This document shows positions 4,928 through 61,880 of a DNA stretch of 64,000 bases, one piece after another (position 1 is the stretch's first letter; every line of letters starts with the position of its first letter). Source of the DNA: Uranotaenia lowii (lineage: Eukaryota > Arthropoda > Insecta > Diptera > Culicidae); contig NC_073692.1 in assembly GCF_029784155.1 (NCBI RefSeq), positions 237,106,503 through 237,170,502 on the forward strand, read 5' to 3'. The notes beneath the pieces were generated by a model. It was not told where the DNA came from. It worked only from the letters and a program-made list of their open reading frames with translations, and searched no databases. A program made the position numbers and the translations under genes.

Positions 4928-5245
4928 TCAATAAAGATGATAGTCTCTGTATCGAATGGGAATGGTTCGTGTTCTAGCAGATCTCCTCAATGGAACCACA
5001 GCTTCACTCGCTTCTGCTGTTGGCATCTTTGATGTGGCAATTTTTCTCGTTGGCTGCATGTCAAAACTGTCGATCAATATATCCAAAGGAAGTTGCGGAT
5101 GATCATTCGGTGCTTCACTATAGCGACGTATCATTTGGTTTATGTGTGCTGATACAATTCGCCCGTTGTCCAACTTCACCATATACATCACGTTCCCGCG
5201 ACATTCAACCACTTCCCCCGAGCGCCACTTCGATGATCCTCGCAC
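4928..5245 (-). pseudogene. C-terminal fragment of the Ty3/gypsy pol
   Basis: About 105 codons on the minus strand that belong after residue ~1261 of the upstream frame. They contain a small beta-rich module (GEVVECRGNVMYMVKLDNG) typical of the integrase C-terminal region of gypsy elements, then a basic tail with RRSARTRTIPIRYRD before the TGA stop. The fragment is cut off from its start by the 9.27-kb insertion. Disregarding the insertion and one target-site copy, the two parts are in the same reading frame. The longer open frame running to 5482 includes foreign transposon sequence and is not a real protein. Confidence 0.88.
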
Positions 5246-5666
5246 ATGCTGCTCAGGGTTCAACACGCAGGAGTGCGTCGATTGAGAAAGAGCAAATAAA
5301 ACGCAGCTCTTTCGTTCTCGGTTCACGGGCACATTTGATTGCTCGAAATTCTCTCGAGAAATTTGTGACCAAAACGCAGATTGAAAATTTTTGAGCAGAG
5401 CGAATTCGCGCGCGCCTATTCGAGAGCGCGAGCGGTTCGGAAACTGCGTTTGCGTTTTTCTGCCGCGTGCGTGTAGGAACACCGAGCATCTACCGAGAGG
5501 ACACGGCGGCTCACCGGACGACGCGCGCGGCTCTCTTTAGCACACGGAGTGTTCGCCGTGTTTTCGTTATTGAGGGCCGACGGCATAATCTGTGCGAATA
5601 ATTAAATCAATAGATATGGTAAAACAGATAGAAGCACGCAATAGCCTTGGGAGGAGGGTTATAATA

Positions 5667-8600
5667 ATCAATGTTAGAAGTTTTAAAATACATACTAGTA
5701 ATAGTAACTAGCACTAGTAACTATGAAAAATTTACCATGCAATAGTAAAATTTCGCGAAAAACGCCAAATCAAAGAGCTTTACACAAGGATTGTTAAAAT
5801 GAATGTTAAAAATATTCTAGCCACTAGTAATAGTTACCAGCACTAGTAACTATGAAAAATTTACCATGAAATAAAAAAATTTCGCGAAAAACGCCAAATG
5901 AAAGAGCTTTACGCGTAGAATGTTAAAATGAATGTTAAAAATGTTTTAGCCACTAGTAATAGTTACCAGCACTAGTAACTATGAAAAATTTACCATGCAA
6001 TAGTAAAATTTCGCGAAAAACGCCAAATCAAAGAGCTTTACACAAGGATTGTTAAAACGAATGTTAAAAATGTTTTAGCCACTAGTAATAGTTACCAGCA
6101 CTAGTAACTATGAAAAATTTACCATGAAATAAAAAAATTTCGCGAAAAACGCCAAATGAAAGGGCCTTACACAAGGATTGTTAAAATGAATGTTAAAAAT
6201 GTTTTAGCCACTAGTAATAGTTACCAGCACTAGTAACTATGAACAATTTACCATGCAATAGTAAAATTTCGCGAAAAATGCCAAATGAAAGAGCTTTACA
6301 CAAGGATTGTTAAAATGAATGTTAAAAATATTCTAGCCACTAGTAATAGTTACCAGCACTAGTAACTATGAAAAATTTACCATGCAATAGTAAAATTTCG
6401 CGAAAAACGCCAAATCAAAGAGCTTTACACAAGGATTGTTAAAACGAATGTTAAAAATGTTTTAGCCACTAGTAATAGTTACCAGCACTAGTAACTATGA
6501 AAAATTTACCATGCAATAGTAAAATTTCGCGAAAAATGCCAAATGAAAGAGCTTTACACAAGGATTGTTAAAATGAATGTTAAAAATATTCTAGCCACTA
6601 GTAATAGTTACCAGCACTAGTAACTATGAAAAATTTACCATGCAATAGTAAAATTTCGCGAAAAACGCCAAATCAAAGAGCTTTACACAAGGATTGTTAA
6701 AACGAATGTTAAAAATGTTTTAGCCACTAGTAATAGTTACCAGCACTAGTAACTATGAAAAATTTACCATGAAATAAAAAAATTTCGCGAAAAACGCCAA
6801 ATGAAAGGGCTTTACACAAGGATTGTTAAAATGAATGTTAAAAATATTCTAGCCACTAGTAATAGTTACCAGCACTAGTAACTATGAAAAATTTACCATG
6901 CAATAGTAAAATTTCGCGAAAATTGCCACATCAAAGAGCTTTACGCGTAGAATGTTAAAATGAATGTTAAAAATGTTTTAGCCACTAGTAATATTTACCA
7001 GCACTAGTAACTATGAAAAATTTACCATGAAATAGTAAAATTTCGCGAAAAACGCCAAATGAAAGAGCTTTACACAAGGATTGTTAAAATGAATGTTAAA
7101 AATATTCTAGCCACTAGTAATAGTTACCAGCACTAGTAACTATGAAAAATTTACCATGCAATAGTAAAATTTCGCGAAAAACGCCAAATCAAAGAGCTTT
7201 ACACAAGGATTGTTAAAACGAATGTTAAAAATGTTTTAGCCACTAGTAATAGTTACCAGCACTAGTAACTATGAAAAATTTACCATGCAATAGTAAAATT
7301 TCGCGAAAAATGCCAAATGAAAGAGCTTTACACAAGGATTGTTAAAATGAATGTTAAAAATATTCTAGCCACTAGTAATAGTTACCAGCACTAGTAACTA
7401 TGAAAAATTTACCATGCAATAGTAAAATTTCGCGAAAAACGCCAAATCAAAGAGCTTTACACAAGGATTGTTAAAACGAATGTTAAAAATGTTTTAGCCA
7501 CTAGTAATAGTTACCAGCACTAGTAACTATGAAAAATTTACCATGAAATAAAAAAATTTCGCGAAAAACGCCAAATGAAAGGGCTTTACACAAGGATTGT
7601 TAAAATGAATGTTAAAAATATTCTAGCCACTAGTAATAGTTACCAGCACTAGTAACTATGAAAAATTTACCATGCAATAGTAAAATTTCGCGAAAATTGC
7701 CACATCAAAGAGCTTTACGCGTAGAATGTTAAAATGAATGTTAAAAATGTTTTAGCCACTAGTAATATTTACCAGCACTAGTAACTATGAAAAATTTACC
7801 ATGAAATAGTAAAATTTCGCGAAAAACGCCAAATGAAAGAGCTTTACACAAGGATTGTTAAAATGAATGTTAAATATATTCTAGCCACTAGTAATAGTTA
7901 CCAGCACTAGTAACTATGAAAAATTTACCATGCAATAGTAAAATTTCGCGAAAAACGCCAAATCAAAGAGCTTTACACAAGGATTGTTAAAATGAATGTT
8001 AAAAATATTCTAGCCACTAGTAATAGTTACCAGCACTAGTAACTATGAAAAATTTACCATGCAATAGTAAAATTTCGCGAAAAACGCCAAATGAAAGAGC
8101 TTTACACAAGGATTGTTAAAATGAATGTTAAAAATATTCTAGCCACTAGTAATAGTTACCAGCACTAGTAACTATGAAAAGTTAACCATGCAATAGTAAA
8201 ATTTCGCGAAAAACGCCAAATGAAAGAGCTTTACACAAGGATTGTTAAAATGAATGTTAAAAATATTCTAGCCACTAGTAATAGTTACCAGCACTAGTAA
8301 CTATGAAAAATTTACCATGCAATAGTAAAATTTCGCGAAAAACGCCAAATCAAAGAGCTTTACACAAGGATTGTTAAAATGAATGTTAAATATATTCTAG
8401 CCACTAGTAATAGTTACCAGCACTAGTAACTATGAAAAATTTACCATGCAATAGTAAAATTTCGCGAAAAACGCCAAATCAAAGAGCTTTACACAAGGAT
8501 TGTTAAAACGAATGTTAAAAATGTTTTAGCCACTAGTAATAGTTACCAGCACTAGTAACTATGAACAATTTACCATGCAATAGTAAAATTTCGCGAAAAA

Positions 8601-9690
8601 TGCCACATCAAAGAGCTTTACGCGTAGAATGTTAAAATGAATGTTAAAAATGTTTTAGCCACTAGTAATAGTTACCAGCACTAGTAACTATGAAAAATTT
8701 ACCATGCAATAGTAAAATTTCGCGAAAAATGCCAAATGAAAGAGCTTTACACAAGGATTGTTAAAATGAATGTTAAAAATATTCTAGCCACTAGTAATAG
8801 TTACCAGCACTAGTAACTATGAAAAATTTACCATGCAATAGTAAAATTTCGCGAAAAACGCCAAATCAAAGAGCTTTACACAAGGATTGTTAAAACGAAT
8901 GCTAAAAATGTTTTAGCCACTAGTAATAGTTACCAGCACTAGTAACTATGAAAAATTTACCATGAAATAAAAAAAATTCGCGAAAAACGCCAAATGAAAG
9001 GGCTTTACACAAGGATTGTTAAAATGAATGTTAAAAATATTCTAGCCACTAGTAATAGTTACCAGCACTAGTAACTATGAAAAATTTACCATGCAATAGT
9101 AAAATTTCGCGAAAAACGCCAAATCAAAGAGCTTTACACAAGGATTGTTAAAACGAATTTTAAAAATGTTTTAGCCACTAGTAATAGTTACCAGCACTAG
9201 TAACTATGAAAAATTTACCATGAAATAAAAAAATTTCGCGAAAAACGCCAAATGAAAGGGCTTTACACAAGGATTGTTAAAATGAATGTTAAAAATATTC
9301 TAGCCACTAGTAATAGTTACCAGCACTAGTAACTATGAAAAATTTACCATGCAATAGTAAAATTTCGCGAAAATTGCCACATCAAAGAGCTTTACGCGTA
9401 GAATGTTAAAATGAATGTTAAAAATGTTTTAGCCACTAGTAATATTTACCAGCACTAGTAACTATGAAAAATTTACCATGAAATAGTAAAATTTCGCGAA
9501 AAATGCCAAATCAAAGAGCTTTACGCGTAGAATGTTAAAATAAATGTTGGAATACCTCTGCAACTAGTTATAGTTACCAGCACTAGTAACAATGAAAAAT
9601 TTACCATGTTATAATGATTTTTCGCGAAAAACGCTTAATCAAAGGTTCTAAAGATTGTTCAAATGAATGTCGAAATATTCTAGCTGCTAG
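5667..9690 (+). repeat. 129-bp satellite array, forward arm
   Basis: Starts of CCACTAGTAATAGTTACC at 5821, 5950 and 6079 give a unit of 129 bp. Units contain ACTAGT palindromes, TAGTTAC...GTAACTA as a 7-bp inverted repeat, and the palindrome TTTCGCGAAA. Variants such as TTTACGCGTAG, ACATCAAAG and AATAAAAAAATTT mark subtypes. The marker AATTGCCACATC recurs near 6923, 7697 and 9374, i.e. spaced 774 bp (6 units) and 1677 bp (13 units), showing block duplication by unequal exchange. The last units (9540-9690) are more divergent. Confidence 0.97.
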
Positions 9691-9937
9691 AAAACACATG
9701 CAATTATGGTCACAGAATGCATGCACACAACACTCAACTCAGTTTACATGTTAGTGTCAACAAATTTTCAATGAAAACAGATTTTTATTAGTTCTACATA
9801 TGTGTAAGCTTTTTCGTTTTTTTAGAATTCCGGGTCAAATGTCGGATCTTCGATGATGTCATAGTTATTTTCAAATAATAGATTTTTTTCTAATATTTCC
9901 GGAGACAAGTTGACACGGAATATGATCAATATTTTTT
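9691..9937. other. Unique spacer between the inverted satellite arms
   Basis: About 250 bp of AT-rich sequence separates the two opposed arrays. It has no open frame of note and no obvious promoter. It begins about where the last divergent forward unit decays (AAAACACATGCAATTATGG) and ends in ATTTTTTCGTTTTTCGCGAA, where the inverted array begins. Confidence 0.7.
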
Positions 9938-12900
9938 CGTTTTTCGCGAAATTTTACTATTTCATGGTAAATTTTTCATAGTTACTAGTGCTGGTAACTA
10001 TTACTAGTGGCTAAAACATTTTTAACATTCATTTTAACAATCCTTGTGTAAAGCTCTTTCATTTGGCGTTTTTCGCGAAATTTTACTATTGCATGGTAAA
10101 TTTTTCATAGTTACTAGTGCTGGTAACTATTACTAGTGGCTAGAATATATTTAACATTCATTTTAACAATCCTTGTGTAAAGCTCTTTCATTTGGCGTTT
10201 TTCGCGAAATTTTACTATTTCATGGTAAATTGTTCATAGTTACTAGTGCTGGTAACTATTACTAGTGGCTAGAATATATTTAACATTCATTTTTACAATC
10301 CTTGTGTAAAGCTCTTTCATTTGGCGTTTTTCGCGAAATTTTACTATTTCATGGTAAATTTTTCATAGTTACTAGTGCTGGTAACTATTACTAGTGGCTA
10401 GGATATTTTCAACATTTATTTTAACAATCCTTGTGTAAGGCCCTTTCATTTGGCGTTTTTCGCGAAATTTTACTATTGCATGGTAAATTTGTCATAGTTA
10501 CTAGTGCTGGTAACTATTACCAGTGGCTAAAACATTTTTAACATTCATTTTAACAATCCTTGTGTAAAGCTCTTTGATTTGGCGTTTTTCGCGAAATTTT
10601 ACTATTTCATGGTAAATTGTTCATAGTTACTAGTGCTGGTAACTATTACCAGTGGCTAAAACATTTTTAACATTCATTTTAACAATCCTTGTGTAAAGCT
10701 CTTTCATTTGGCGTTTTTCGCGAAATTTTACTATTTCATGGTAAATTTTTCATAGTTACTAGTGCTGGTAACTATTACTAGTGGCTAGAATATATTTAAC
10801 ATTCATTTTAACAATCCTTGTGTAAAGCTCTTTCATTTGGCGTTTTTCGCGAAATTTTACTATTTCATGGTAAATTTTTCATAGTTACTAGTGCTGGTAA
10901 CTATTACCAGTGGCTAAAACATTTTTAACATTCATTTTAACAATCCTTGTGTAAAGTTCTTTCATTTGGCGTTTTTCGCGAAATTTTACTATTTCATGGT
11001 AAATTTTTCATAGTTACTAGTGCTGGTAACTATTACTAGTGGCTAGAACATTTTTAACATTCATTTTAACAATCCTTGTGTAAAGCTCTTTCATTTGGCG
11101 TTTTTCGCGAAATTTTACTATTTCATGGTAAATTTGTCATAGTTACTAGTGCTGGTAACTATTACCAGTGGCTAAAACATTTTTAACATTCATTTTAACA
11201 ATCCTTGTGTAAAGCTCTTTCATTTGGCGTTTTTCGCGAAATTTTACTATTTCATGGTAAATTTGTAATAGTTACTAGTGCTGGTAACTATTTCCAGTGG
11301 CTAAAACATTTTTAACATTCATTTTAACAATCCTTGTGTAAAGCTCTTTCATTTGGCGTTTTTCGCGAAATTTTACTATTTCATGGTAAATTGTTCATAG
11401 TTACTAGTGCTGGTAACTATTACCAGTGGCTAAAACATTTTTAACATTCATTTTAACAATCCTTGTGTAAAGCTCTTTCATTTGGCGTTTTTCGCGAAAT
11501 TTTACTATTTCATGGTAAATTGTTCATAGTTACTAGTGCTGGTAACTATTACCAGTGGCTAAAACATTTTTAACATTCATTTTAACAATCCTTGTGTAAA
11601 GCTCTTTCATTTGGCGTTTTTCGCGAAATTTTACTATTTCATGGTAAATTGTTCATAGTTACTAGTGCTGGTAACTATTACCAGTGGCTAAAACATTTTT
11701 AACATTCATTTTAACAATCCTTGTGTAAAGCTCTTTCATTTGGCGTTTTTCGCGAAATTTTACTATTGCATGGTAAATTTTTCATAGTTACTAGTGCTGG
11801 TAACTATTACTAGTGGCTAGAATATATTTAACATTCATTTTAACAATCCTTGTGTAATGCTTTTTCATTTGGCGTTTTTCGCGAAATTTTACTATTTCAT
11901 GGTAAATTTTTCATAGTTACTAGTGCTGGTAACTATTACTAGTGGCTAGAACATTTTTAACATTCATTTTAACAATCCTTGTGTAAAGCTCTTTCATTTG
12001 GCGTTTTTCGCGAAATTTTACTATTTCATGGTAAATTTGTCATAGTTACTAGTGCTGGTAACTATTACCAGTGGCTAAAACATTTTTAACATTCATTTTA
12101 ACAATCCTTGTGTAAAGCTCTTTCATTTGGCGTTTTTCGCGAAATTTTACTATTTCATGGTAAATTGTTCATAGTTACTAGTGCTGGTAACTATTACCAG
12201 TGGCCAAAACATTTTTAACATTCATTTTAACAATCCTTGTGTAAAGCTCTTTCATTTGGCGTTTTTCGCGAAATTTTACTATTTCATGGTAAATTTTTCA
12301 TAGTTACTAGTGCTGGTAACTATTACCAGTGGCTAAAACATTTTTAACATTCATTTTAACAATCCTTGTGTAAAGTTCTTTCATTTGGCGTTTTTCGCGA
12401 AATTTTACTATTTCATGGTAAATTTTTCATAGTTACTAGTGCTGGTAACTATTACTAGTGGCTAGAACATTTTTAACATTCATTTTAACAATCCTTGTGT
12501 AAAGCTCTTTCATTTGGCGTTTTTCGCGAAATTTTACTATTTCATGGTAAATTTGTCATAGTTACTAGTGCTGGTAACTATTACCAGTGGCTAAAACATT
12601 TTTAACATTCATTTTAACAATCCTTGTGTAAAGCTCTTTCATTTGGCGTTTTTCGCGAAATTTTACTATTTCATGGTAAATTTGTAATAGTTACTAGTGC
12701 TGGTAACTATTTCCAGTGGCTAAAACATTTTTAACATTCATTTTAACAATCCTTGTGTAAAGCTCTTTCATTTGGCGTTTTTCGCGAAATTTTACTATTT
12801 CATGGTAAATTGTTCATAGTTACTAGTGCTGGTAACTATTACCAGTGGCTAAAACATTTTTAACATTCATTTTAACAATCCTTGTGTAAAGCTCTTTCAT

Positions 12901-14008
12901 TTGGCGTTTTTCGCGAAATTTTACTATTTCATGGTAAATTGTTCATAGTTACTAGTGCTGGTAACTATTACCAGTGGCTAAAACATTTTTAACATTCATT
13001 TTAACAATCCTTGTGTAAAGCTCTTTCATTTGGCGTTTTTCGCGAAATTTTACTATTTCATGGTAAATTGTTCATAGTTACTAGTGCTGGTAACTATTAC
13101 CAGTGGCTAAAACATTTTTAACATTCATTTTAACAATCCTTGTGTAAAGCTCTTTCATTTGGCGTTTTTCGCGAAATTTTACTATTGCATGGTAAATTTT
13201 TCATAGTTACTAGTGCTGGTAACTATTACTAGTGGCTAGAATATATTTAACATTCATTTTAACAATCCTTGTGTAATGCTTTTTCATTTGGCGTTTTTCG
13301 CGAAATTTTACTATTTCATGGTAAATTTTTCATAGTTACTAGTGCTGGTAACTATTACTAGTGGCTAGAACATTTTTAACATTCATTTTAACAATCCTTG
13401 TGTAAAGCTCTTTCATTTGGCGTTTTTCGCGAAATTTTACTATTTCATGGTAAATTTGTCATAGTTACTAGTGCTGGTAACTATTACCAGTGGCTAAAAC
13501 ATTTTTAACATTCATTTTAACAATCCTTGTGTAAAGCTCTTTCATTTGGCGTTTTTCGCGAAATTTTACTATTTCATGGTAAATTGTTCATAGTTACTAG
13601 TGCTGGTAACTATTACCAGTGGCCAAAACATTTTTAACATTCATTTTAACAATCCTTGTGTAAAGCTCTTTCATTTGGCGTTTTTCGCGAAATTTTACTA
13701 TTTCATGGTAAATTTTTCATAGTTACTAGTGCTGGTAACTATTACTAGTGGCTAAAACATTTTTAACATTCGTTTTACCGATTCTTGCGTAAAGCTTTTT
13801 CATCTGGCATTTTTCGAGAATTTTTACTAGTTCATGGTAAATTTTTCATAGTTACTAGTGCTGGTAACTATTACTAGTGGCTAGAATATTTTCAACATGC
13901 ATTTTAACAATCCTTGTGTAAAGCTTTTTGATTTGGCATTTTTCGCGAAATTTTACTATTGCATGGTAAATTTTTCATAGTTACTAGTGCTGGTAACTGT
14001 TAATAATG
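9938..14008 (-). repeat. 129-bp satellite array, inverted arm
   Basis: The same 129-bp unit as at 5667-9690, now in reverse complement (GTAACTATTACTAGTGGCTA). The rare variant CTATTTCCAGTGG occurs at about 11288 and 12707, and GTAAAGTTCTTTC at about 10951 and 12370. Both pairs are 1419 bp apart, exactly 11 units, so an 11-unit block has been duplicated. The terminal units at 13770-14008 are divergent. Variant mix differs from the forward arm (TTGTTCATAG and TACCAGTGG types dominate here), so the arms have evolved partly independently. Confidence 0.97.
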
Positions 14009-14521
14009 GGCAACGTTAACCACCTACATCAATTCTCATAACCCTCCGCCAGATCCCATTGCGCGCCTACATATGTTTCAACTATCCTGTTGATAAAATC
14101 TTACACACTGATTTCTCAATCGGCACTGCAAACAGAAACACGAACGAAACACAAGGCCCTCACTCGAGCCCGTGCGCGCCGCCCGGTGAAGAAAAGAGGG
14201 CCGCCTCGGACCATTCGGAGAGCCGCCGCGCGCTGCATTGTGGGCCGCTGCGTGCTGTTCTTTGAGCCAAAAGAGAGGCCTCACCCGCCGCTCGATTAGG
14301 ACGCGCGAGAGCTAGCCGTGCCTGTTTGACTCGGCCGCTCGCGCAGATTTCGGTTAGTGCATCTCGTCGACGAGAACGAGGGGAAAAGATTGAGCTACCG
14401 TGTTTTTGTTTCGAGCGAGAGCGCGTCAACGGACAGAACGCAAACGAAGAAGTGTTTCGCTCGAGAGGAATGGTTTGCGTGTGCCGCGCGCGTCTAAAAG
14501 AGTGCGTTTTGTTGAACCCTG
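14009..14521. other. Right unique end of the satellite transposon
   Basis: About 500 bp, much more GC-rich than its surroundings, with CGCGC and GAGCG runs. Overlapping open frames on both strands reflect high GC and the absence of stops rather than coding; none resembles a known protein. It ends with TGTTGAACCCTG, the inverse of the left terminus. Confidence 0.6.
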
Positions 14522-17500
14522 ATGCTGCTGAACATACACTGCATCGCCAATCTCAAAACGTCGTATTCCATCTACATCCGGAACCTCATATTTGGTGGTG
14601 TCCTTTGGTGGTAGCAAAAGATCTAAATGTGAACGTATACGACGTCCAAATAAAAGTTCAGATGGTGATTTTCCTTCACTCGCATTACGGTTCGGAGTTA
14701 TTCTGTAGTTTAACAAAAATGTGTCTAAAGCAGATTGCAAGTCTCCTTCGGGATGATAAATTTTGGCCAGCGATCGTTTAAACGTGTCCACAAATCTCTC
14801 AGCCTGCCCGTTAGACTGCGGGTGGTAAGGTGGACTACGTATGTGCTCAATGCCGTTCTGGGTACAAAATTCGAGGAAAATATCCGCAGTGAACTGTCGA
14901 CCATTATCACTGACTAACGTTTCCGGCATTCCGAAACGACAGAAAACATCTCGAAGCATTTTAATTGTAGTGGCTGAAGTACAAGTTTTGGATGAAATTA
15001 TTTCGGGCCATTTGGTGAAAGCGTCTACAATTATCAAAAAATACCAACCGTAATGCGGCCCTGCATAGTCAATATGCACTCTTTGGAAGGGCCTAGTTGT
15101 TTCAGGCCATGCCTGCGGAATTGCTCGAGCTGGAGCTTTCAAAGATATGGCGCACTGTCCACATCCGCGTACCCACTCTTGAATATCAGAATCTAGCCGT
15201 GGCCAATAGATGTAGCTTCTTGCCAAAGCTTTCATACGCTCTATGCCTGGATGAGCAGTGTGCAATTGTTTTAAGACCTTCGTGCGATAACAGCGTGGTA
15301 TGACGAGACGATCTCCAAACATAAGGCAACCCTCAGTGATGGATAGAGAGTCCCTTATTTCGTAGAATTTCTTCGTTTCTCCTTGAAGCTTGTTAGTTGA
15401 TACCGGCCAACCATTCTGAAGAAAGTTGACAACCTTCGAAAGCTCATCATCTTCGTTGAAAGCAGAGCGAATCATTCTAAAACTGAGAGGTATATTTAAA
15501 GAATTTATAGCAACATGAAGTACCTCTTTTAAATCTGCGTCAACTGATACGGCTGCTATAACAATATCATCGTCTGGCTTTGCACACCGATTGATCAGTC
15601 TAGACAATAGATCTGCATTCCCGAAGTCAGTGGTTCGCACATAAAGGATTTCAAAGTCGTACGCTAAGAGTGTTACTGCCCATCTCTGTAGTCGATTCGC
15701 AGCATAAACTGGTACACCTTTCTTAGATCCGAAAATAGAAAGTAAAGGCTTGTGATCCGTTTCCAGCTTAAAATGGCGTCCATAGATAAAACGGTGAAAA
15801 CGGGTAACAGCAAAAATCAGAGCAAGACCTTCTTTTTCTATTTGTCCGTAATTTTGTTCTGCTGATGATAGCGCACGAGATACATGGTAAATCGCCTTCC
15901 TAGTACCATCCGGAAAAACGTGTTGGATGCAGGCACCGATGCCAAAGTTAGATGCATCAGCAGAAACGATGACTGGCAAATGTGGATCGTAGTGTGTCAG
16001 TGCCAAATCTGATAACAAAATCGTCTTGAAGGAGTCGAAACTTTTCTGGCATTGTTCAGTCCATTCAAAATGCGTATTCGATGATTTCAATAGATTGTCC
16101 AAGGGATACCGCAAATTACGCATGTGCGGGATAAATTTCCCATAATAATTTACAGCACCCAAAAATGACCGTAATGTTGCAACATCGGTGGGTGCTGGCA
16201 TGTTAGAAATGGCCAGTGCTTTTTCCGGATCTGGACGTATTCCCGTACGATCAATGATGTGGCCTAAGTATTTTACTGACTCCGCAAAGAACTGGCATTT
16301 CTCTTCCTTCAACCGTAATCCGAACTCTCGAAATTTCTTCAGCACCTGTTCTAGACGATCATCATGCTCTGCTTTCGTACAACCGGTGATAATGACATCG
16401 TCTATGTACGGTTTGACGCCAGGAATTCCTGCAAGAATGGTGTCTATTACTTGCTGGAATGCTCCAGGTGCGGAACGTAGCCCCGGTGAAAGGCGGTTGT
16501 ATTGATAGAGACCCTTGTGTGTATTTATAGTCAGGTACTTACGGGACTCTTCCGAAACGTTCATCAGCAAATAACCGTCACGCAGATCCAAAATGCTGAA
16601 CATAATTCCACCGGTTAAAGTTGCGAATATTTCGTCTGGAGTTGGAAGTGGGTATTTGTGAGGCGTTAACACTGCATTCAAGCCAGTCGAATAGTCTCCA
16701 CATATTCGCACCGTCTTATCCGACTTTTTAACAACCACGATAGGGGCTGCCCAATCGGAATACGAGACAGGGGTGATAACACCACGTCTTTCGAGCCTGT
16801 CCAACTCCTGCTCAACTAGGTTTAGAGAACCAAAAGAAACTGGTCGCTTTGGTCGGAAAACAGGAACGGCGCCTTCTTTCACTGTTAGGTTAACTTCAAC
16901 TTTGGCACATACACTTGGCTCATTAGAAAACACATCCGAGTATCTGGATTTTAGTGTCCTGATTTGATTATCGTCGGATAGTTGCAGTTTCCGACAAATG
17001 CTGCTAATGGGAACGTCCCAAATGCCAAACCGTTCGATCCAATCGATTCCCAGAATGTTGAGATTGGATTTGGTAACGTAAACAGTACCTTGTTTTGATT
17101 TTCCTGCTAACGTCAAAGTTGCTTGAAACTGCGATGATAGTTGTAAGTTGGACCCAGATGCTGTTAGCGCTCTTGCTGATGTAGTTGTGGTGACAGGTTT
17201 ACCAATAATAGCCCAGCGCTTTTCAGAAATCACTGTGATATCAGACGCAGTATCAATCTGTAGATCTGTTTTGACACCGTTTAGCAACACTACAACATAT
17301 TTCCTCGACGCAACATTCAGTACTTGATTACACACCAGTGATCGAGATTTGTATCGGTGCCAATTATTACCATCTCCTCGACCACCACCTGAACGATTTT
17401 GTTTGTATGGTATATTCCTGGATGGACGAATACAGCCACAATAACCTTCTTTATGCCCGACTTGTTGACATTCCGCACAGCGATGGTTTGCGTACTCACA

Positions 17501-18304
17501 TTCACGAACGAAATGAACTCCGCCACACAACCAACATGGAGCTTTCGGTAGATTCGTTGATGTTGCTCGTGTATCAGTGTGTGCAGCTGCCTTATGCACA
17601 GAATTCACTTCTTGTTGCTCGACCATAGATGTGTCTTTCCGCAAATTCACTAACCTGTTACATTCATCCGCCAGTAGAGCCAGGGTCATGGTATCTGGTT
17701 CGGTTTCTAGTCGATTTATAAGACGCATTCTTATTTCCGCTTCATCTGGCGATTGCAAGCCGCATACGAACACTAGGCACTTAAATTGATCAACGGTTGT
17801 TCTGCCAACATTAAACTCTTCACAGCGCCGGTTAACTGCCGCAGAATAGCTTATATAATCTTCGTGGCTGGATTTTACCGTTTGGAGACAACGATAACGT
17901 TTTCGAAACATCGATGTGCCTTCGCCGAAAACAACTTGGAGTTTTGCAATCGTTTCTTCAAAATTTAAATCCTTTGGAGTTTTTGGAAGTATGAAATCAA
18001 CATAACGTTGATGTGACACAGGGGAGAACTTCCTTAGCAATAACCTAACTTTGCTCGCGTCGTCCAGTGCTGACGCATCCTTGCTGAACAAATCTTCATA
18101 ACGGCTATACCAAGTTAGGAAAGTAACTTCGTTTTCGGGATCGTACACAAATTCGGACATAGTGTTGGATAACGATTCCAAAACAAACTCATTAGCATTC
18201 GTTTTTTGTGCCACTGAATTTTTCACTAACTCTTCGAGAAGTTTCTGCTGGCCTTGCAGAATACTCATAAGTAGTTGATCGCTTGGTGGATGATTGGTAG
18301 CCAT
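14522..18304 (-). pseudogene. Gag-pol polyprotein of the Ty3/gypsy element, 3'-interrupted
   Basis: A single long frame starting MATNHPPSDQ at 18304, just inside the 5' LTR. Domains: gag-like helical region 1-230; two CCHC zinc knuckles (257-269 and 276-289); aspartic protease with DTAS at 351-354; reverse transcriptase with YIDD at 633-636; RNase H with an acidic DAS at 783-785; integrase with an HHCC zinc site (H1015, H1018, C1048, C1051) and catalytic D1079, D1133 and E1169. Gag and pol are in one frame, as in several mag-lineage elements. All key catalytic residues are present. Native coding ends at about residue 1261, where the DNA transposon begins; the last ~31 residues of the open frame (down to 14426) are transposon sequence. 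The missing C-terminus is at 4928-5245. Confidence 0.93.
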
Positions 18305-36453: not shown

Positions 36454-55303
<18,850 letters not shown>

Positions 55304-61639: not shown

Positions 61640-61880
61640 AGCCGGGCAGCTTTGCCGGTAAATTGAAGGAATGTTTTTGTTGTTGCTTTTGCTACATACA
61701 AACGCACAGCTTAGCCGTGGTTGTTTGCCGGTTGATTGAATTGAAGGAATGTTTTTTTTGTTGTTGCTTTTACTGCATACACACGCACAGCTCGGCCGTG
61801 GTTGTTTGCCGGTAGATTGAATGGATTGAATTAGAAGGATGTTTTTGTTGTTGCTTTTGCTACATTCACACGCACAGCGC
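61640..61880. repeat. Minisatellite, three units of about 78-91 bp
   Basis: GAAGGAATGTTTTTGTTGTT recurs at 61665, 61743 and (as GAAGGATG) 61834. Each is followed by GCTTTTGCTACATACA and CGCACAGC...GCCG-type sequence. The open frame on the minus strand (CSKSNNKNI repeats) is a by-product of the repeat. Confidence 0.8.

What the first reader, a model, noticed from the sequence alone, without database searches (positions are those of the whole stretch)
5246..14529. A 9.27-kb DNA transposon built from two inverted satellite arrays
Seen: 12-bp TIRs (CAGGGTTCAACA), a perfect 8-bp target duplication (ATGCTGCT) and, inside, about 31 forward plus about 31 inverted copies of a 129-bp repeat around a ~250-bp spacer. 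Known: Foldback and Galileo elements have long inverted arms with tandem repeats; hAT and P elements make 8-bp TSDs. Inference: satellite DNA is being moved by a transposition mechanism and not only by local unequal exchange, which would be a route for spreading a satellite between loci. I do not know a described mosquito element with this exact build.
Basis: partly seen in the sequence, partly recalled or inferred. Interest (0 to 1): 0.93.

Follow-up and report, generated by a model that had tools for sequence, protein, structure and literature searches.

The report
A transposon carrying its own satellite
This 9,268-base stretch, with about 31 forward and 31 inverted copies of a 129-base repeat, is one of many copies of a hAT-type jumping-gene family that likely spread this satellite-like repeat through the genome by cut-and-paste, and a 31.9-kb sister copy carries transposase-gene exons between two arrays of the same repeat.

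Summary
In detail: one 12-bp inverted repeat per end, a perfect 8-bp duplication, and 31.0 + 31.5 copies of a 129-bp unit around a 253-bp spacer. It is one member of a hAT family: 171 left and 156 right ends genome-wide, control 0; perfect duplications in 30 of 31 elements tested. All 38 array loci taken from three capped lists have a family end within 12 kb. An empty site exists. Reversed, the spacer encodes the last ~39 residues of a hAT transposase. A 31,890-bp sister copy with the same ends and a perfect duplication holds about 123 forward units, transposase exons and about 42 inverted units. So the window copy is best read as a gene-deleted derivative of a transposon that carries the satellite at both ends. 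Arrays differ by multi-unit blocks, a whole double array sits at two sites with 4 mismatches in 4,956 bp, and the window's centre is inverted relative to its ends. Closest known: Herves, Tetris, Galileo. New variant of a known kind. Species, transposase activity and array function are untested.

The parts
5246..5253 (.). target-site duplication ATGCTGCT, left copy
   Evidence: single copy at the empty site C2:293047068-293047467
5254..5265 (+). 12-bp terminal inverted repeat CAGGGTTCAACA, left
5254..5693 (+). left terminal arm, 440 bp, shared by other family copies
5694..9684 (+). forward array, 31.0 copies of the 129-bp unit
   Evidence: a 6-unit block recurs
9685..9937 (.). 253-bp spacer, remnant of the 3' end of the transposase gene and what follows it, inverted relative to the coding copy
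9828..9944 (-). last ~39 codons of the hAT transposase (69% to the query piece)
   Evidence: (C2:237116330-237116446:-), translation
9938..14002 (-). inverted array, 31.5 copies of the 129-bp unit
   Evidence: an 11-unit block recurs
14003..14521 (-). right terminal arm, 519 bp, shared by other family copies
14510..14521 (-). 12-bp terminal inverted repeat, right
14522..14529 (.). target-site duplication ATGCTGCT, right copy

Best explanation
The window element belongs to a hAT transposon family whose members carry a 129-bp tandem repeat inside both ends in opposite orientations, and it likely arose by deletion of the transposase gene from such a transposon and was likely moved here by a transposase supplied by a coding sister copy. 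Shown: shared ends, perfect 8-bp duplications, an empty site, a 31.9-kb sister with the same ends, both arrays and transposase exons, and a transposase 3' remnant in the window's spacer. Inferred: recurrent internal deletions removed the gene and left double-array elements, some of which then multiplied (at least three classes with a shared junction or breakpoint). Inferred: array length changes by unequal exchange or slippage in blocks of several units. Inferred: recombination between the inverted arrays flipped the centre of the window's class. The satellite would thus be dispersed by cut-and-paste and resized in place. What the arrays do is untested; the candidate role is docking of the transposase or a host protein on the 8-bp inverted repeat in the well-conserved part of each unit.
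For: Ends: 171 left and 156 right, control 0; of the 100+100 listed, 59 convergent left/right pairs within 40 kb, 0 same-end, 0 divergent. Perfect 8-bp duplications in 30 of 31 elements; among 30 distinct ones T at position 2 in 19 and A at position 7 in 21, p = 2e-8. Empty site over 400 of 400 bases at 96%. Array loci: 38 of 38 have a family end within 12 kb. Coding copy: exact ends 31,890 bp apart, duplication TTTGTGAC, open frames of 318, 249 and 184 codons, hAT dimerisation domain E = 1.8e-12, Hermes E = 3.7e-6, 92 listed forward units in exact 129-bp register over 15.7 kb. Deletion classes: 6 of 6 gene-fragment elements compared share a breakpoint, 15 loci share the 39-residue remnant, 47 places share the head-to-head junction with 0-1 mismatch. 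Inversion: 652-column alignment at 89.6% in reverse, orientations 14 of 14 against 1 of 12. Movement of a whole double array: L068/L070, 4 mismatches in 4,956 bp, different flanks. Block growth.
Against: L068 lacks the duplication at its 3' side because another copy abuts. Two of 14 gene-fragment loci (78-80% identity) have no listed family end near. The gene's splicing and activity are untested; its first two exons hit no Pfam family at E 0.01. 133528110-133546899 of the coding copy was not read, only sampled by search hits up to 133543847. The end lists show 100 of 171 and 100 of 156, and the array searches scored 40 of 669 and 40 of 636 candidates, so free arrays elsewhere are not excluded. 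Large arrays may have grown after insertion rather than been carried.
Confidence: 0.92

Rival explanations
1. Captured satellite: an independent chromosomal satellite entered the transposon once and now hitchhikes with it.
For: The unit resembles neither terminal arm above shuffled controls (4 of 4 arm/strand alignments below the shuffle maximum), so its origin inside the transposon is not shown.
Against: No array without a family end nearby in 38 loci; the coding copy carries arrays at both ends.
Confidence: 0.15
2. Spread of array blocks by segmental duplication or ectopic exchange between loci, not by transposition.
For: Array order differs by multi-unit blocks, and inverted arrays favour exchange.
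Against: Elements end exactly at the TIRs with their own 8-bp duplications, 30 of 31 perfect; L068 and L070 have different flanks; an empty site exists.
Confidence: 0.02
3. Assembly artefact: the inverted arms are a false join or a mirror copy of one locus.
For: No reads could be inspected, and long near-identical arrays are hard to assemble.
Against: 0 of 930 left-right unit pairs in the window are identical and no mirror offset stands out; the same build recurs at other loci with other unit numbers.
Confidence: 0.01
4. A Foldback-, Mutator- or P/Galileo-type element rather than hAT.
Against: hAT dimerisation domain and Hermes similarity in the coding sister and remnants; nTnnnnAn duplications.
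Confidence: 0.02

Closest known systems
Herves, hAT element of Anopheles gambiae (PMC3143072, passages only)
   Same: hAT superfamily; short TIRs; long asymmetric ends; three imperfect 100-bp tandem repeats starting 146 bp from the left end.
   Different: Three repeats at one end there; here up to about 123 and 42 units inside both ends, in inverted orientation, plus gene-free double-array derivatives.
Tetris, Drosophila virilis (PMC4079207; abstract and first parts of Results and Discussion)
   Same: Inverted arms holding ~220-bp tandem repeats, 8-10 bp duplications, variable unit number, link to a satellite.
   Different: No transposase found there, tentatively placed in Mutator, and free satellite arrays exist; here a hAT transposase is in the family and no free array was seen.
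Galileo, P superfamily, Drosophila (PMC3688188 and PMC3573991, passages only)
   Same: Long internally repetitive inverted arms; tandem-repeat expansion; exchange between arms; transposase-binding sites shown in arm repeats.
   Different: Different superfamily (THAP/P transposase); two or three ~210-bp repeats per arm in the F group.
Tandem-repeat MITEs and Helentrons (clam Donax, Xenopus miDNA4, Pacific oyster): review PMC12628747, passages; PMC7492417, listing only
   Same: Non-autonomous elements that carry and disperse satellite-like repeats.
   Different: Other element types; no inverted double array with a coding hAT sister was seen in the passages read.

Membership tests
hAT superfamily | 8-bp target-site duplication | tested here: met
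   30 of 31 elements perfect
hAT superfamily | nTnnnnAn target preference (recalled for Ac/hobo/Hermes) | tested here: met
   19 of 30 T at position 2, 21 of 30 A at position 7, p = 2e-8
hAT superfamily | short TIR beginning CA-G-G type (recalled) | tested here: met
   CAGGGTTCAACA; the consensus itself is recalled
hAT superfamily | hAT transposase in an element with the same ends | tested here: met
   PF05699 E = 1.8e-12; Hermes E = 3.7e-6; inside exact family ends with a duplication
hAT superfamily | catalytic D-D-E with CxxH and RW motifs (names recalled) | tested here: inconclusive
   Candidate residues align with relatives, but splicing and catalysis are unverified
hAT superfamily | active transposition by the encoded protein | not testable with these tools
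   needs an excision assay
Foldback-like elements | long inverted arms made of tandem repeats | tested here: met
   inverted arrays inside both ends; it works like one, but the outer arms are not inverted copies beyond 12 bp
Galileo / P superfamily | P/THAP transposase | tested here: not met
   the transposase pieces match hAT families, no P or THAP match
Free-standing satellite DNA | arrays independent of a mobile element | tested here: not met
   38 of 38 array loci have a family end within 12 kb; capped lists, unassembled DNA not covered

The most novel reading that the evidence does not exclude
A hAT transposon grew a satellite of its own inside both ends: one 31.9-kb coding copy carries about 165 units, and the inverted arrays act as an engine that deletes and flips the gene and keeps giving rise to gene-free subfamilies. 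The whole dispersed satellite (2,040 units with an exact 21-mer) would be transposase-borne, and the inverted-repeat core of the units would serve the transposase as a many-site docking platform.
Probability: 0.3. Interest if true: 0.78.

Novelty: new variant of a known kind. Interest (0 to 1): 0.62.

Why it matters
Transposons are often proposed as birthplaces and vehicles of satellite DNA, but Tetris, the closest such case read here, lacked a coding partner. Here one genome holds a transposase-bearing element with the arrays in place, derivatives in several deletion classes, a near-identical double array at two sites, arrays caught at different lengths, and a filled/empty-site pair. Array growth relative to transposition, and any cost or benefit of arrays to mobility, become directly testable.

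Tried and rejected
Mirror duplication or assembly join: 0 of 930 left-right unit pairs in the window identical, no mirror offset stands out. Unit as an amplified piece of an arm: all 4 arm/strand alignments to the unit stay below the shuffle maximum. Shared short motif between arms and unit: AAAACGC occurs in both arms and the unit if the bases next to the TIR are counted (no significance test); with the first 12 bases of each arm left out no 7-mer is shared, and the best shared 6-mer, AAAGAG, is reached by 19 of 500 shuffles. Extruded hairpin role: folding z-score only -1.76, 12 of 200 shuffles at least as stable. Known element by its end sequence: full-text search for the TIR letters, 11 papers, 9 listed, none about transposons by title. 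Literature searches for this build; in their listings and the passages read I saw no hAT with inverted satellite-size arrays and a coding sister; the library holds open-licence papers only, and Repbase was not searchable. The mosquito piRNA satellite (tapiR) was only looked up as a listing and not compared by sequence. An NCBIfam scan of the first exon gave nothing. Aedes genome paper PMC6421076: passages only, nothing on this repeat.
Full report
Observation. A 440-bp left arm and a 519-bp right arm lie outside the arrays.

A family of elements. The exact 12-mer occurs 222+205 times in the 1.08-Gb genome, against 27+29 for the reversed control. Longer end patterns with up to 3 mismatches give 171 left and 156 right ends, control 0. 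Only 100 of each were listed, best matches first; these form 59 convergent left/right pairs within 40 kb, with no same-end and no divergent pair, 1.8 to 31.9 kb long, median 4.8 kb. 19 of 20 have a perfect 8-bp duplication at the outermost pair; the miss, L068, abuts another copy. Ten more pairs on C2 and C3 gave 10 of 10. With the window that is 30 of 31. The 30 distinct duplications show T at position 2 in 19 and A at position 7 in 21, p = 2e-8.

Insertion shown. The window flanks joined at one ATGCTGCT match C2:293047068-293047467 over 400 of 400 bases at 96%, and two further places over query bases 4-399 at 79-80%. The flank is a Ty3/gypsy-like retrotransposon frame (my reading of the translation, not scanned): the element sits inside one copy of another repeat.

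Arrays in the family. Of the window plus 20 fetched elements, 19 of 21 have unit matches in both orientations, L065 and L069 in one only. Arms hold from under 1 to about 31 units; L061 has little more than one unit in all. Eight of the 21 (L051, L052, L053, L054, L057, L060, L064, L066) share one head-to-head junction, and L055 and L062 are similar at the break. That junction occurs with 0 or 1 mismatch at 47 places genome-wide (34 + 13; up to 3 mismatches there are 255, which include ordinary units, against 2 in the control). An exact 21-mer of the unit occurs 1,063+977 times, control 0. All 38 distinct array loci taken from the listed rows have a family end within 12 kb. Those lists are capped: searches scored 40 of 669 and 40 of 636 candidates. 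Of the first 100 unit matches in contig order, 97 lie inside complete end pairs and 3 in a locus where only the left end was found. So wherever I could look, this satellite sat inside the transposon.

The transposase. Searching with the C-terminal 138 residues found 14 loci at 78-99% identity and, separately, 15 loci including the window that keep only about 39 residues at 69-79%. 12 of the 14 and 14 of the 15 lie inside family end pairs; the fifteenth has a right end 2 kb away; two of the fourteen have no listed end near. The window's spacer, read backwards, ends in such a remnant. One locus, at C3:133.55 Mb, also has the catalytic region: open frames of 318, 249 and 184 codons. The last holds the hAT dimerisation domain (E = 1.8e-12) and matches Hermes among solved structures (E = 3.7e-6). 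The first two frames hit no Pfam family at E 0.01 and together find five proteins at 24-33% identity; one carries a BED zinc finger and one, from the thrips Frankliniella, the hAT domain. The copy's ends are exact family ends 31,890 bp apart with the duplication TTTGTGAC. Just inside the left arm stands a forward unit. 92 listed forward units from there on span 15.7 kb in exact 129-bp register with no gap above two units, implying about 123 units. The inverted array runs from the gene's end to the right arm, about 42 units if that arm is as long as in the window. 133528110-133546899 was not read directly. Splicing and activity are unverified.

How the derivatives arose. Six of six gene-fragment elements compared start their match to the coding copy at the same base, with left-array units joined directly to it (the other eight fragment loci were not compared), so they share one deletion. 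The window class (15 loci) and the head-to-head class (47 places) share others. Gene-free elements therefore look like internal deletions that kept both arrays and then multiplied (inference). In the window the inner three units of the left array plus the spacer, reversed, align over 652 columns at 89.6% to the gene end plus inner right array of the coding copy. The window's innermost left unit is 5.7% from that array's edge unit, 8.1 and 8.9% from two sister right-array edges, and 16.3% or more from the other seven edges listed. All 14 relics with both ends point right to left; 11 of 12 longer gene pieces point left to right. The simplest reading is one inversion by recombination between the inverted arrays, inherited by the window's class, and another in the single exception (inference).

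How arrays change. L066 and L057, at different sites, differ by insertions of about one, two or seven whole units; a nine-unit block stands twice in a row in L066's right array, and blocks with a period of 11, 8 and 6 units recur in the window's right array, L056's right array and the window's left array. Over 400 units (pieces aligned over fewer than 115 bases dropped) the mean distance is 6.8% within an array, 7.7% between arms of one element and 8.6-8.9% between elements. The nearest relative is in the same arm of another element for 210, the same array for 143, the other arm of another element for 36 and the other arm of the same element for 11. Edge units diverge most: 8.4% outermost, 12.3% innermost, 6.3% middle, over 26 arrays of six or more units. 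This fits arrays inherited with the moving element and then resized by unequal exchange (inference). L068 and L070 show a whole 30-unit double array at two sites with 4 mismatches in 4,956 bp and different flanks.

Function of the arrays. Unknown. The 24-bp block ATAGTTAC-N8-GTAACTAT, a perfect 8-bp inverted repeat, ranks 5th of 129 circular windows in conservation over all units, 7th over 286 distinct units, and 1st to 15th in eight single elements. A protein-binding site is a lead only. Against the idea that arrays merely multiply a site of the arms: with the first 12 bases left out, no 7-mer is common to both arms and the unit; with them, AAAACGC is. Galileo offers the precedent of transposase sites in arm repeats (PMC3688188, passages).

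Known and new. hAT elements with a few subterminal tandem repeats are known (Herves), as are a foldback element linked to a satellite (Tetris) and MITEs with repeats. I saw no hAT with inverted arrays of this size at both ends and a coding sister in my searches, which cover open-licence papers only. I rate it a new variant of a known kind.

Noticed in passing
L072-L074, L078-L080 (e.g. L072 nt 1563); C3:133553034: The 12-bp TIR sequence also occurs inside the transposase's last exon, in the codons for NRVQQ; a possible internal cryptic end or a coincidence.
   Followed up: partly
window 4928-5253 and 14426-18304 (-): The element splits the frame of a Ty3/gypsy-like retrotransposon (own reading); another copy of that stretch at C2:293047068 lacks the insert. 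Observed only.
   Followed up: partly
window 50642-55303 (+): Exons of a muscle-type myosin heavy chain gene, about 36 kb from the element.
   Followed up: partly
L068 nt 5150-5356 (C1:109144494 onward): A second family copy abuts the first, its end beginning CGGGTTCAACA; a reverse TIR follows at C1:109150287. Possibly two copies at one target.
   Followed up: no
G000:C1:72638242 and C1:72655058: Pieces of a related transposase (61-83%, some with stops) lie about 230 bp from exact copies of the 12-bp TIR; possibly older relatives of the family.
   Followed up: no
G000:C3:133528030-133543847: The coding copy's forward array keeps exact 129-bp register over 122 steps, while its inverted array drifts in register; the forward array may be a recent expansion.
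   Followed up: no
window 61660-61878: A separate 81-bp tandem repeat of 2.7 copies.
   Followed up: no
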